Assembly: GCA_002706445.1 (NCBI GenBank)
Contig: PALE01000034.1
Location: 16,026 to 80,025 of the forward strand
Source of the DNA: Erythrobacteraceae bacterium
GTDB lineage: Bacteria; Pseudomonadota; Alphaproteobacteria; Sphingomonadales; Sphingomonadaceae
DNA length: 64,000 nucleotides
Direction: 5' to 3'
This document shows positions 11,297 to 38,335 of this stretch, in pieces. A program made the translations under genes and the position numbers. The notes under the pieces were generated by a model that did no database searches, was not told the origin of the DNA, and saw only the letters and a list, made by a program, of their open reading frames with translations. Within the stretch, counting starts at the first letter, position 1. Each line of letters opens with the position of its first letter.

Positions 11297-12700
11297 ATGA
11301 ACAAGCTGACAGGGCCGCTACTCAATGCGGCCCAGGCCAACAGGATAGACCATCCAGTCGCGCCGTCGCTCGAGCGTCGGCGGCTGCGCGCCTATGTGAT
11401 GATGATGCTGGCCGATGCGATCGTGCTGCATCTGGCCTTTGCCGGCGCGGGCCTCGTCTACGAAGGCGTCTGGTGGTATGCCCGCAACATGCTGGCGGTG
11501 CAGGTGTTGTTGCCGGTCTATTTCACCATCGCTCTCTACAACGAAACCTATGGCGGAAAGTCGCTCGATAGCTGGACTTTCGCCTCGAAGCGCGCGCTGA
11601 CCGCGCTGCTTATTTCGGTCGCGCTGCTCAACTTCCTGGCGTTCTACACCAAGTCCAACGCCGATTTCTCGCGTGTTTCGGTCACGCTGGGTCTCGCGGC
11701 CTCGGCGGTAGCGATTGTGCTTTTGCGGCGGTTCGCAGCGCTGGTGGTCGAGAAATTCTGGGGCGGACGCACCCGTAACCTGTTGGTCATCGACGATGGC
11801 GGTTCGCACTTCACGCTCGAAGATGCTGTGCATATCACCGCCAAAGACCATTCGCTCGATCCCACCAGCCACGATCCCTTTATGCTCGACCGGCTCGGCA
11901 AGCTTTTGCAGAATCAGGACAAGGTCGTGATTTCGACGCCCAAGGAGCGGCGCGAATATTGGGCGTTCTTGCTCAAATCGGCAGGCGTCTATGGCGAGAT
12001 CGTCAGCGAGCCCGCCAATTCGCTCGGTGCGATGGGGGTGCATCGCTACGAAGATCAGGACCGCACGACCCTGGTGGTGGCGACCGGACCGTTGGGGCTG
12101 CGTTCGCGTATTTCCAAGCGGCTGTTCGACGTGGTGGTCGCTGGCAGCGCGCTGGTCGCGCTCTCGCCGCTGCTGCTTTTCATTGCTCTGCGGATCAAGC
12201 TTGAGGACGGTGGTCCGGTTCTCTTCATCCAGCGCCGGCTCGGGCGCGGGAACCAGTTCTTCAACATGCTCAAATTCCGGTCGATGAAGGTCGAGCAGAA
12301 CGATGCCAATGGCGACCGTTCGACCGCGCGCGATGACGACCGGATTACGAAGACCGGCCACTTCATCCGTCGCACATCGATCGACGAGCTGCCGCAGTTG
12401 ATCAATGTGCTGCGCGGTGACATGTCGATTGTCGGCCCGCGTCCGCACGCGCTCGGCAGTCAGGCGGGGAACAAGTACTTCTGGGAAGTCGACGCGAAAT
12501 ACTGGCAGCGCCACTGCCTCAAACCGGGACTTACGGGTCTGGCCCAGGTGCGCGGTCATCGCGGCGCGACCGAAGAGGAAAAAGACCTCACCGACCGCCT
12601 GCAGTCGGACCTCGAATACATCTCCGGCTGGTCGCTGCGGCGCGATATCGAGATCGTGTTGCAGACGGTTCTCGTGCTGAAGCACGATAACGCGTTTTAG
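11297..12700 (+). CDS. undecaprenyl-phosphate sugar phosphotransferase (exopolysaccharide initiating transferase)
   Basis: N-terminal TM segments; KRLFDVVVAGSALVALSPLLL, KFRSMKVEQNDANGDRSTARDDDRITKTGHFIRRTSIDELPQLINVLRGDMSIVGPRPHA. Confidence 0.94.
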   Translation: MNKLTGPLLNAAQANRIDHPVAPSLERRRLRAYVMMMLADAIVLHLAFAGAGLVYEGVWWYARNMLAVQVLLPVYFTIALYNETYGGKSLDSWTFASKRALTALLISVALLNFLAFYTKSNADFSRVSVTLGLAASAVAIVLLRRFAALVVEKFWGGRTRNLLVIDDGGSHFTLEDAVHITAKDHSLDPTSHDPFMLDRLGKLLQNQDKVVISTPKERREYWAFLLKSAGVYGEIVSEPANSLGAMGVHRYEDQDRTTLVVATGPLGLRSRISKRLFDVVVAGSALVALSPLLLFIALRIKLEDGGPVLFIQRRLGRGNQFFNMLKFRSMKVEQNDANGDRSTARDDDRITKTGHFIRRTSIDELPQLINVLRGDMSIVGPRPHALGSQAGNKYFWEVDAKYWQRHCLKPGLTGLAQVRGHRGATEEEKDLTDRLQSDLEYISGWSLRRDIEIVLQTVLVLKHDNAF

Positions 12701-12801: not shown

Positions 12802-12897
12802 CGGCCTGCAAGGCCGCAAGCGCGACTGCGCGCCCGCAACGGGTCCGTAGCGAAGCGGAGGCCGTCTAGTGAGGACGAAGGCGCGGATGCGCCTTCG
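12802..12897 (-). repeat. multi-hairpin element copy A (relative of 38138-38231)
   Basis: First hairpin CGAAGGCGC-ATCC-GCGCCTTCG, then TCCTCACTAGACG linker, CCCG-TTG-CGGG, GCGC-AGTC-GCGC, CGGCCT-TGC-AGGCCG; aligns with copy B. Confidence 0.75.
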
Positions 12898-12920
12898 GAA
12901 CAAAAAAGAAAAGCAAGACG

Positions 12921-13472
12921 TTAGTCTTGCGGCACGTTGAATGTGCCGCTGACCCGGCCCGTCGAGCCGTCGCTATTGGTCGCGCCGCCGCGGCCATCGA
13001 CTGTCGAGAGGCCGCTTGCGAGGTCAATCACCAGTCGGCCGCCGCGCAGCGTGTCGCTGCCGCGCTTCAATTCGACATTGCCCGACATGGTGATCACCCG
13101 CCGGTTGAAATCATAAACAGCGACATCGCCCGATGCGCGTTCGTTTCCGCGCGTGACTACAACCCCGCCATTTGCAGTGATCTGTTGCACTTCCAGCGAG
13201 CCGGCGTCGGTATAGTTCAGCAACATGCGGCTTGATCGCACGGTCAGCCCGGCCTGGTTCACCACCACGCCGCCGGTCAGCACCACGCGGTTGGCACGGT
13301 CGTCGAAATTGATGCTGCCTGCATCGAAAGAGACGGGTGCGCGGGTGTTGTGCGAGGCAAGGCCCTGCGCGTGCAGCGTCATTCCGCCCGCGAGCACCGC
13401 GCCCAGCGCGAGGCCGCCTGCCGCCCAACCCAGCGCAATCTTGCCCAATCCCGTCTTCATCGTCCTGTCCAT
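12921..13472 (-). CDS. lptA: LptA/OstA-family LPS transport periplasmic protein
   Basis: APVSFDAGSINFDDRANRVVLTGGVVVNQAGLTVRSSRMLLNYTD OstA pattern; next to lptC. Confidence 0.88.
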   Translation of the reverse strand: MDRTMKTGLGKIALGWAAGGLALGAVLAGGMTLHAQGLASHNTRAPVSFDAGSINFDDRANRVVLTGGVVVNQAGLTVRSSRMLLNYTDAGSLEVQQITANGGVVVTRGNERASGDVAVYDFNRRVITMSGNVELKRGSDTLRGGRLVIDLASGLSTVDGRGGATNSDGSTGRVSGTFNVPQD

Positions 13473-35956: not shown

Positions 35957-38134
35957 ATGATCCGCAAAGCCACATTCCTTCTCGCCAGCACCGCCGCGCT
36001 CGCGCTGGCTGGAGCCGCCCACGCGCAGAACGCGCAGGACCAGGTCCCTGCCGATATCGAACTGCTGCAAGAGCAGGATGACGCCGGAGCCGAAGCCTCC
36101 ACGCCGACGATGAGTTTCGGCACCTGGGGCGTCGATTCCGATCTGCTTTCGGACACGATCGAGCCGGGCGAGGACTTCTTCGGCTACGTCAATCAGGAAT
36201 GGCTCGACGCCAACCCGCTGCCTTCCGAATACAGCCGCTTCGGCGCGTTCAACCTGTTGCGCGAGAAATCGACCAATGATGTCGCCGCGCTGATGGACGA
36301 GCTGGTCGAAAAGCCGCACGACACGCTGAGCGATGACGAGCGCCGCATTGTCGACATGCACAATGCCTTCCTCGACACCGACGCTATCGATACCGCCGGC
36401 CTTGTTCCGGCCTATCCCTATCTGGGCGCGATTGCCGAGGCGACCAGCCTCGACAAGCTGGCAACGCTGTGGTCGACCTCCGGCTATCCCAGCCCGATCT
36501 CGGGCTATGTCAGCGTCGATGCCAAGCAGCCTGACCGCTATGTCGCCTATCTCGGCAGCGGCGGCCTCGGCATGCCCGACCGCGACTACTACCTCGACGA
36601 CAGCGAGAAGGGTCGGGAGATTCAGGCGAAGTATAAGGAATACCTCGCCATGCTGCTGGGCGAGGCAGGCTATGCCGATCCGGCAGCCGCCGCCGAAGCC
36701 GTCTATGCGATGGAAGACCGCATCGCGCGCACTATTGCATGGGATCGCACCGCGCGCCGCAACCGCGACCTCACCTACAACGCGCTGAGCATGGACGAGT
36801 TGAAGGCGATGTCGGGCGATTTCCCCGTCGCCAGCGCGCTTGCCACTATCGGCCTCGATGAATCGCCGATTTTCGTCGTGGGCAATATGCCGCCGACCGA
36901 CGAAGAGATCGAAGAGCTGGGCCTCACGCAAGAGCAGCTTGCCAATATCGGCAGCGGTATGCCGGGCATGATGCAGCTGCTGAACGATACGCCGGTTGCA
37001 ACGCTGCAGGCGTGGACGATCAAGGAATTCCTGTCCGATCATTCCGACGTCCTGCCGACGAAGTTCGACGAGGCGAATTTCGCCTTTTACGGCAAGCTGC
37101 TGCGCGGCCAGCCCGAACAGCGTCCGCGCTGGAAGCGTGCGATCGACCATGCCGAGGGCGGTCTGGGTGAACTGATCGGCGCATCCTATGTCGAGCGCTA
37201 CTTCCCGCCCGAAAACAAGGCGGCGATGGAAGAGCTGGTCGAAAACCTGCGCACCGCGCTCGGCCAGTCGATCGACGAGATCGCGTGGATGGGCGAGGAA
37301 ACCAAGGCGAAGGCGCATGAGAAGCTTTCGACCTTCGACCCCAAGATCGGCTATCGCGACAACCTCGAGACCTACGAAGGCCTCGAAGTGACCGCCGACA
37401 ACCCGCTTGCCAACAGCATTGCGGCAGGTACTTGGGCGCTGGAAGACAACGTCAGCAAGCTCGGCCAGCCGATCGACCGCACCGAGTGGTTCATGCTGCC
37501 GCAGACGGTCAACGCCTATTACAACTCGACCAAGAACGAGATCGTGTTTCCGGCTGCGATCCTGCAACAGCCGTTCTTTGCGCTGACCAATGATCCGGCG
37601 GTCAATTACGGCGCGATCGGCGGGGTTATCGGCCACGAAATGGGCCACGGCTTCGACGATCAGGGCTCCAAGTCCGACGCTTCGGGCGCGCTGCGCAATT
37701 GGTGGACCGACGAGGACCGCGCCAATTTCGACGCCCGCACCGATGCGCTGGTCGCCCAGTATGACGGTTTCTGCCCGCTCGACGACGGTGAAACCTGCGT
37801 CAACGGGCGCTTCACCCTTGGCGAGAACATCGGCGACCTCGGCGGGCTGAGTCTTGCCTATCGTGCCTACAAGATCGCAACCGAAGGGCAGGACGTGCCG
37901 GTGATCGACGGGCTGACAGGTGACCAGCGCTTCTTCATCGCCTGGGCGCAGGTGTGGCGTTCGCAGCAGCGCGAGGACAACTACCGCCAGCGTCTGCGCA
38001 CCGACCCGCACAGCCCCGAGGAATACCGCACCAACGGCGTCGTGCGGAACCTTGGCGAATGGTACGAAGCCTTCGGCATTACCGAGGACGATCCCATGTA
38101 TCTGCCGCCCGAAGAGCGCGTGCGTATCTGGTGA
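35957..38134 (+). CDS. M13 family metallopeptidase (neprilysin-like)
   Basis: Signal peptide; EPGEDFFGYVNQEWL, GGVIGHEMGHGFDDQG (HExxH), ENIGDLGG. Confidence 0.97.
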   Translation: MIRKATFLLASTAALALAGAAHAQNAQDQVPADIELLQEQDDAGAEASTPTMSFGTWGVDSDLLSDTIEPGEDFFGYVNQEWLDANPLPSEYSRFGAFNLLREKSTNDVAALMDELVEKPHDTLSDDERRIVDMHNAFLDTDAIDTAGLVPAYPYLGAIAEATSLDKLATLWSTSGYPSPISGYVSVDAKQPDRYVAYLGSGGLGMPDRDYYLDDSEKGREIQAKYKEYLAMLLGEAGYADPAAAAEAVYAMEDRIARTIAWDRTARRNRDLTYNALSMDELKAMSGDFPVASALATIGLDESPIFVVGNMPPTDEEIEELGLTQEQLANIGSGMPGMMQLLNDTPVATLQAWTIKEFLSDHSDVLPTKFDEANFAFYGKLLRGQPEQRPRWKRAIDHAEGGLGELIGASYVERYFPPENKAAMEELVENLRTALGQSIDEIAWMGEETKAKAHEKLSTFDPKIGYRDNLETYEGLEVTADNPLANSIAAGTWALEDNVSKLGQPIDRTEWFMLPQTVNAYYNSTKNEIVFPAAILQQPFFALTNDPAVNYGAIGGVIGHEMGHGFDDQGSKSDASGALRNWWTDEDRANFDARTDALVAQYDGFCPLDDGETCVNGRFTLGENIGDLGGLSLAYRAYKIATEGQDVPVIDGLTGDQRFFIAWAQVWRSQQREDNYRQRLRTDPHSPEEYRTNGVVRNLGEWYEAFGITEDDPMYLPPEERVRIW

Positions 38135-38137
38135 TTT

Positions 38138-38231
38138 CGCAGCCCCATCCGGGGCTGCGTCCTCGCAAGACGCGCAGCAAAGCTGCGCCCGCTGCGGGCG
38201 GGCGGTCGCCCTTGCGGCCTCTGCGAGACCG
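38138..38231 (+). repeat. multi-hairpin element copy B (relative of 12802-12897)
   Basis: CGCAGCCCC-ATCC-GGGGCTGCG, TCCTCGCAAGACG, GCGCAGC-AAA-GCTGCGC, CCCG-CTG-CGGG, GGGC-GGTC-GCCC, CGGCCTC-TGC-GAGACCG. Confidence 0.75.
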
Positions 38232-38248
38232 TTCAGGCTCGGTCATCT

Positions 38249-38270
38249 CCCCTCCCGCTTGCGGGAGGGG
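38249..38270. repeat. hairpin CCCCTCCCG-CTTG-CGGGAGGGG
   Basis: 9-bp perfect stem between the M13 peptidase and uppP. Confidence 0.7.
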
Positions 38271-38335
38271 GTAGGGGTGGGTAAAGCCTGTGTCGACGCC
38301 GATCATGGCGCATCGACAAGGCCGCCATTACCTCC

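What the first reader, a model, noticed from the sequence alone, without database searches (positions are those of the whole stretch)
12802..12897. Multi-hairpin 3'-flanking element A: same architecture as 38138-38231, with compensatory stem changes
Seen directly. Reading the - strand from 12897 gives CGAAGGCGC-ATCC-GCGCCTTCG, TCCTCACTAGACG, a variable arm, CCGTTGCGGGCGCGCAGTCGCGCTTGCGGCCT and a TGC-loop hairpin. Copy B at 38138 (+) aligns end to end (96 vs 94 nt): linker 11/13 identical, core 28/32 identical. In the first hairpin three of nine base pairs differ and all three are compensated, with the ATCC loop unchanged. In the core stem GCGC-AGTC-GCGC vs GGGC-GGTC-GCCC, a C:G pair becomes G:C. 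Both copies lie in the sense direction just after a stop codon (24 nt after lptA, 4 nt after the M13 peptidase). Inference: a dispersed structured element acting as RNA (3'UTR stability/termination) or a structured mobile repeat.
Basis: partly seen in the sequence, partly recalled or inferred. Interest (0 to 1): 0.72.

Follow-up and report, generated by a model that had tools for sequence, protein, structure and literature searches.

The report
Hairpin repeat found behind gene ends
A roughly 95-base, multi-hairpin repeat is scattered through one family of alphaproteobacteria, usually sitting a few bases behind the end of a gene, and its stems keep changing sequence while staying paired; it looks like an undescribed relative of REP/ERIC-type repeats whose job is not yet known.

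Summary
Copies A (12802-12897, -) and B (38138-38231, +) belong to a dispersed family: 29 covariance-model matches in the window's own 2.25 Mb assembly and at least one match in 100 of 100 sampled genomes of its genus; in an order-wide sample all listed matches were in the same family. Five helices are paired in 94.6% of cells, with massive two-sided covariation. No Rfam family matches. Copies sit behind gene ends: hairpin 1 starts at most 15 nt after a stop codon in 115 of 216 intergenic copies. Sense copies also follow tRNA genes and, in about 23 of 30 genomes, 6S RNA. A T/G-rich leader comes with the element. Sites are present or absent between species.

Imperfect stems hold more A-C than G-U mispairs in the sense strand (38 vs 17), the reverse of intrinsic terminators from the same genomes (3 vs 12), and compensated changes are mostly transversions. 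That points to DNA-level or opposite-strand maintenance. I file it as an undescribed REP/ERIC/BOX-like composite repeat, not a member of the tagged REP superfamilies. Means of spread and function remain inferred.

The parts
12802..12897 (-). copy A, whole structured element (behind lptA, in the convergent gap with a sugar-transferase gene)
   Evidence: R1 match 85.0 bits; sequence
12898..12920 (-). T-rich leader between the lptA stop codon and hairpin 1 of copy A
   Evidence: sequence; family leader is 61% T, 4% A against 19% T after other stops
12876..12897 (-). copy A hairpin 1 (9 bp, loop ATCC)
   Evidence: covariation helix 1
12863..12875 (-). copy A constant linker TCCTCACTAGACG
12842..12862 (-). 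copy A variable hairpin-2 arm
12820..12831 (-). copy A hairpin 3 GCGC-AGTC-GCGC
12802..12816 (-). copy A hairpin 4 CGGCCT-TGC-AGGCCG
12921..13472 (-). lptA-like gene whose stop precedes copy A
11297..12700 (+). sugar-transferase-like gene converging on copy A
   Evidence: function by reading of the protein, not searched
38138..38231 (+). copy B, whole structured element (between M13 peptidase and uppP-like genes)
   Evidence: R1 match 94.4 bits; sequence
38138..38159 (+). copy B hairpin 1 (9 bp, loop ATCC)
38160..38172 (+). copy B constant linker TCCTCGCAAGACG
38173..38187 (+). copy B hairpin 2 CGCAGC-AAA-GCTGCG
38200..38211 (+). copy B hairpin 3 GGGC-GGTC-GCCC
38215..38231 (+). copy B hairpin 4; one C-A mispair in the sense strand, a G-U pair in the opposite strand
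35957..38134 (+). M13 peptidase gene whose stop is 4 nt before copy B
   Evidence: annotated M13 relatives in plasmids

Best explanation
It is a non-autonomous, dispersed composite palindromic repeat (REP/ERIC/BOX-like in kind): a T/G-rich leader, hairpin 1 with loop NTCC, the constant linker TCCTCGCTAGACG, a variable hairpin 2, hairpin 3 (loop RGTC) and hairpin 4. Shown: dispersal, paired and covarying stems, strong preference for the few bases behind the end of a transcription unit with hairpin 1 facing the gene, turnover between species. Inferred: copies spread and are renewed as DNA. The hairpins form in one single strand (the strand opposite to the upstream gene) and are read there by an unknown recombination or replication-coupled process, which places or keeps the element behind gene ends and lets the stems change while staying complementary. 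Once in place the hairpins are probably transcribed as part of 3' trailers, where they may slow 3'-5' decay as a side effect or a secondary benefit.
For: 29 matches in the own assembly; all 100 genus genomes; all listed matches in an order-wide draw of 301 genomes are in the same family. 94.6% of cells paired, covariation score 0.512 against 0.03-0.11 for slid structures and 0.121 for shuffles. Hairpin-1 side within 30 nt of a sense stop in 121 of 216 copies, 59.8 +/- 4.6 expected for random placement in the same gaps; within 10 nt 94 against 13 for the hairpin-4 side. Only 11 of 216 lie between two gene starts, while 93 of 323 background gaps are divergent. Filled and empty orthologous sites. 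Sense-strand mispairs 38 A-C vs 17 G-U (36 vs 17 after collapsing one lineage, p = 0.013), against 3 vs 12 in intrinsic terminators (Fisher p = 0.002). Compensated changes at orthologous sites 255 transversion-type vs 133 transition-type, so change does not run mainly through G-U intermediates.
Against: No transposase or other enzyme was tied to it: RAYT (PF01797) is absent from element-rich complete genomes. Persistence at orthologous sites (6S RNA in about 23 of 30 genomes, nearly always sense) and the fixed orientation look like host function rather than free spread. Hairpin 4 alone shows no clear polarity (30 vs 23). The outer helix 2 has an almost invariant U-G pair in the sense strand, if that helix is real. 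At the cleanest empty site the filled copy is degraded, so loss is as possible as gain.
Confidence: 0.48

Rival explanations
1. A functional 3'-trailer RNA element in the sense strand: the leader and hairpin array just behind stop codons, tRNAs and 6S RNA define or protect RNA 3' ends (decay barrier, backup termination, processing signal), and selection on RNA pairing causes the covariation.
For: Tight, oriented placement behind stops, behind tRNA-Trp, tRNA-Gln and tRNA-Ala by 10-28 nt, and behind 6S RNA in most genomes although subtypes differ. Convergent copies facing each other are frequent. Sense folding z-scores are slightly better than antisense.
Against: A-C mispairs exceed G-U in the sense strand, unlike terminators. 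No U-tract behind hairpin 4. Ordinary terminators remain beside the element at some sites (L279 against L281; L031, L051, L117). Many species lack the element at the same gene.
Confidence: 0.33
2. The stems stay perfect because of mutation, not selection: replication template switching within imperfect palindromes copies one arm onto the other, so covariation says nothing about function; the element is repeat DNA without a role.
For: The mechanism is reported to create and maintain hairpins with compensatory changes (PMC8794818, abstract start seen, paper not read further). GC-to-CG flips are very common and intermediates rare. Decayed and partly deleted copies exist.
Against: Loops and linkers stay constant across many genera, which decay does not explain. 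The mispair polarity is not expected from a strand-symmetric process. Placement behind gene ends is not explained.
Confidence: 0.14
3. Coincidental resemblance of two ordinary GC-rich terminators.
For: GC-rich genomes have many hairpins, and short parts of the core do match by chance.
Against: Family-wide recurrence, specific linkers and covariation; the full core has no chance match.
Confidence: 0.01

Closest known systems
CGTC- and GTAG-tagged REP superfamilies (Di Nocera et al. 2013, PMC3733652)
   Same: Palindromic, dispersed, mostly extragenic, close behind ORF 3' ends in tandem and convergent gaps, heterogeneous stems; CGTC REPs also lack a known transposase.
   Different: Those are single 20-40 bp palindromes with an unpaired tag, 8-9 bp stems starting with A-T pairs and mostly a CCA tail; this is a ~95-nt array of four hairpins plus an outer helix with other constant parts. 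A CGTC-like repeat (CGTCATCCCGGACTTGATCCGGGATCCAG) occurs separately in flanks of some copies.
BIME / REPIN composites with RAYT
   Same: Several hairpins per unit, found at 3' ends.
   Different: No GTAG tag, no inverted REP pair inside the unit, no RAYT gene in element-rich genomes.
ERIC, BOX and RIME-type intergenic repeats (general knowledge, not tested)
   Same: About 100 nt, modular, intergenic, structure-forming, means of spread unknown.
   Different: Sequence relation not tested; here the element is anchored a few nt behind stops, tRNAs and 6S RNA with a fixed orientation.
Intrinsic terminators
   Same: GC-rich hairpin and T-rich stretch behind genes.
   Different: The T-rich stretch precedes the hairpin; terminators from the same genomes prefer G-U over A-C, this element does not.

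Membership tests
CGTC/GTAG-tagged REP | 20-40 bp single palindrome | tested here: not met
   unit is about 90-100 nt with five helices
CGTC/GTAG-tagged REP | unpaired CGTC or GTAG tag, A-T as first stem pairs, CCA tail | tested here: not met
   hairpin 1 starts with G-C/C-G pairs and is flanked by a T/G-rich leader and TCCTCGC
CGTC/GTAG-tagged REP | location close to ORF 3' ends | tested here: met
   same trend reported for REPs
RAYT-mobilised REPIN | RAYT (Y1 transposase) gene in the genome | tested here: not met
   PF01797 absent in G001, G021, G028, G029, G031 and others rich in copies
any Rfam 15 family | match at gathering score | tested here: not met
   no match in the window; none at E up to 1 around copy A
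intrinsic terminator | U-tract directly after a GC hairpin | tested here: not met
   T-rich stretch is before hairpin 1; no T-run in the 16 nt after hairpin 4
mobile element | filled and empty orthologous sites | tested here: met
   direction (gain or loss) not resolved
mobile element | target-site duplication or known transposase | tested here: inconclusive
   no clear duplication at the one clean site; only RAYT was searched
structured RNA | covariation beyond controls | tested here: met
   (alignment fitted to the model, so it leans that way); repeat it for hairpin 1 without the model
structured RNA | G-U tolerated over A-C in the RNA strand | tested here: not met
   not corrected for relatedness beyond collapsing identical stems and one lineage
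structured RNA | expressed transcript with mapped ends | not testable with these tools
   no RNA data available

The most novel reading that the evidence does not exclude
A lineage-specific class of structured element that marks the ends of transcription units, including 6S RNA and tRNA genes, and is kept in shape as a single-stranded DNA (or opposite-strand RNA) hairpin array by an unknown enzyme, so that its stems are continually rewritten yet stay paired.
Probability: 0.25. Interest if true: 0.75.

Novelty: new variant of a known kind. Interest (0 to 1): 0.56.

Why it matters
Covariation is usually taken as proof of a functional RNA. Here the covariation is overwhelming, but the leftover mispairs point to the wrong strand for a sense RNA, so the family is a natural test of whether hairpin covariation can be made at the DNA level. 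It also gives a tractable case for how a repeat comes to sit within about 10 nt of stop codons, tRNA ends and 6S RNA across a bacterial family.

Tried and rejected
Rfam search of the window and of copy A at E up to 1: nothing. RAYT as driver: absent. Plasmid and phage collections with copy B: no match. Literature by sequence strings and by taxon/repeat words: nothing describing this family (most subscription papers are not held). Naming hosts through genome contigs failed three times because the machine gave no answer. A first codon-based gene caller mis-called an antisense frame and was replaced by a dicodon model that recovered lptA and the M13 gene. Target = any stop triplet: copies away from gene stops have stop triplets in the last 15 nt about as often as shuffles (21 of 65 vs 17.5). 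The idea that the stop codon is supplied by the element is weak: TAG is enriched next to copies (52 of 124 vs 130 of 535, p = 1e-4), but empty sites have the stop already. A first unrestricted hairpin-1 scan contained coding palindromes and gave no significant polarity (54 vs 40); restricting it to the family's loops gave 38 vs 17.

Full report
Observation. The three compensated pairs in hairpin 1, the unchanged ATCC loop, the linker (11/13) and the core (28/32) were recounted from the sequence and hold. Copy A begins 24 nt behind the lptA stop, copy B 4 nt behind the M13 peptidase stop.

Family. Exact searches with 14 core bases found five copies in the window's own assembly and copies in most genus members. 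Fifteen copies were aligned and made into a covariance model, R1. It finds 29 matches at E up to 1 in the 2.25 Mb, 70% complete own assembly, at least one at E up to 0.001 in 100 of 100 genomes of the genus, up to 37 per genome (lower bounds, since at most 43 candidates were scored per genome), and matches in 69 of 301 genomes of the order, all listed ones in the same family, 17 of 80 genera. A second draw within the family gave 27 of 201 genomes at E up to 1e-6, 16 of 96 genera.

Anatomy. Leader rich in T and G (61% T, 4% A; near TTTTTGTTTTG), hairpin 1 of 8-10 bp with loop mostly ATCC, CTCC or GTCC, linker TCCTCGCTAGACG, hairpin 2 of variable length, GCGGGC, hairpin 3 of 4 bp with loop mostly GGTC or AGTC, TTG, hairpin 4 of 5-9 bp. 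Variants replace the first or middle module (for example CCTCAAGCGCCGG... or TCCTCCGGGG...) while hairpins 3 and 4 stay. Hairpin 1 alone occurs in 130 different arm pairs among 286 detected copies.

Covariation. On 91 distinct sequences, 94.6% of cells in 29 pairs are standard pairs, 506 cells carry changes on both sides, and the covariation score is 0.512; shuffles give 70.9%, 146 and 0.121, slid structures 33-55% paired and 0.03-0.11. That alignment was fitted to the model, so I repeated the count for hairpin 1 with a plain script that scores G-U and A-C alike; the stems are still almost all Watson-Crick (964 of 1040 pairs in distinct arms).

Place. Gene calls were made with a dicodon model of my own, which recovered the known genes of the window. 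Of 216 intergenic copies, 92 are in convergent gaps, 73 in tandem gaps in sense, 40 in tandem gaps in antisense, 11 in divergent gaps; background gaps of at least 60 nt in two genomes are 47 convergent, 183 tandem, 93 divergent. The distance from stop to hairpin 1 has a median of 9 nt. The hairpin-1 side lies within 30 nt of a stop 121 times against 59.8 +/- 4.6 for random placement and orientation in the same gaps; the hairpin-4 side 54 times. Within 10 nt it is 94 against 13. Copies also follow tRNA-Trp, tRNA-Gln and tRNA-Ala by 10-28 nt and 6S RNA. Of 30 genomes in which 6S was fetched, 20 have the sense core by a strict pattern within 330 nt and by eye about 23 carry some version, against 16 of 682 gene ends in two genomes.

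Turnover. Behind lptA most of 30 relatives have no element; one has another subtype in sense and two have a copy in the opposite direction, behind the converging gene. Behind the M13 gene two relatives have a sense copy. In one of them (L279) the ordinary intrinsic terminator seen in element-free relatives lies beyond the element. In 400 kb of synteny between two genomes, two of the sites aligned are conserved, one copy is present in only one genome and starts directly behind TGA, one has lost everything but hairpin 1 and part of the linker in the other genome, and at one site the other genome keeps only a matching stem. The filled copy at the clean site is degraded, so gain and loss cannot be told apart there.

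Which strand. If the sense RNA were selected for pairing, leftover imperfections should be G-U rather than A-C. Hairpin 1 shows the reverse: 38 A-C to 17 G-U in distinct arms (36 to 17 after collapsing one lineage, p = 0.013), while 20 intrinsic terminators from tandem gaps of the same loci show 12 G-U to 3 A-C; the difference has Fisher p = 0.002. Hairpin 3 agrees (6 to 1), hairpin 4 is neutral (30 to 23). Copy B itself has a C-A mispair in hairpin 4 that is a G-U pair in the opposite strand. At orthologous sites 255 compensated changes are transversion-type and 133 transition-type (the pairs of loci are not independent). Together this argues for maintenance in the opposite strand or at the DNA level. 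The sample is modest and not corrected for relatedness, so I hold it at moderate strength.

Interpretation. The kind is that of REP, BIME, ERIC and BOX repeats. Di Nocera et al. (PMC3733652) report that REPs lie close behind ORF 3' ends and that CGTC REPs lack a dedicated transposase, so the location alone is not new. This family fails the defining features of both tagged REP superfamilies and of RAYT-driven REPINs. A compensatory pattern without selection, through template switching, is a serious rival for part of the data (PMC8794818, abstract start seen). My best estimate is a non-autonomous composite repeat renewed at the DNA level and housed behind transcription-unit ends, with a possible secondary role in 3' trailers. 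A primary sense-RNA role remains possible, chiefly because of the 6S and tRNA sites.

Limits. No expression data, no named hosts, own gene caller, model seeds from the same genus, orthology by flank similarity only.

Noticed in passing
L404, L409, L420, L424, L427 (behind 6S RNA); L053 (behind a tRNA): A second short palindrome, GCCCTACCGCTTCGCTGCTTGAGGGC, also sits behind 6S RNA and tRNA genes, in one genome in about four tandem copies, between the gene and the element described here.
   Followed up: no
flanks of L044, L135, L142, L154: A CGTC-type REP-like palindrome (CGTCATCCCGGACTTGATCCGGGATCCAG) lies just downstream of several copies; a related pattern has no match in the window.
   Followed up: partly
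window 38246-38282 (+): A G-rich inverted stretch, CCCTCCCGCTTGCGGGAGGGGGTAGGGGTGGG, lies directly behind copy B and looks like another intergenic repeat.
   Followed up: no
L246 and L249, gap behind lptA: Relatives carry the element in the same gap but in the opposite direction, behind the converging sugar-transferase gene.
   Followed up: partly
gene ends with an element within 30 nt: TAG stop codons are nearly twice as common next to the element as elsewhere in the same loci (52 of 124 vs 130 of 535); reason unknown.
   Followed up: partly
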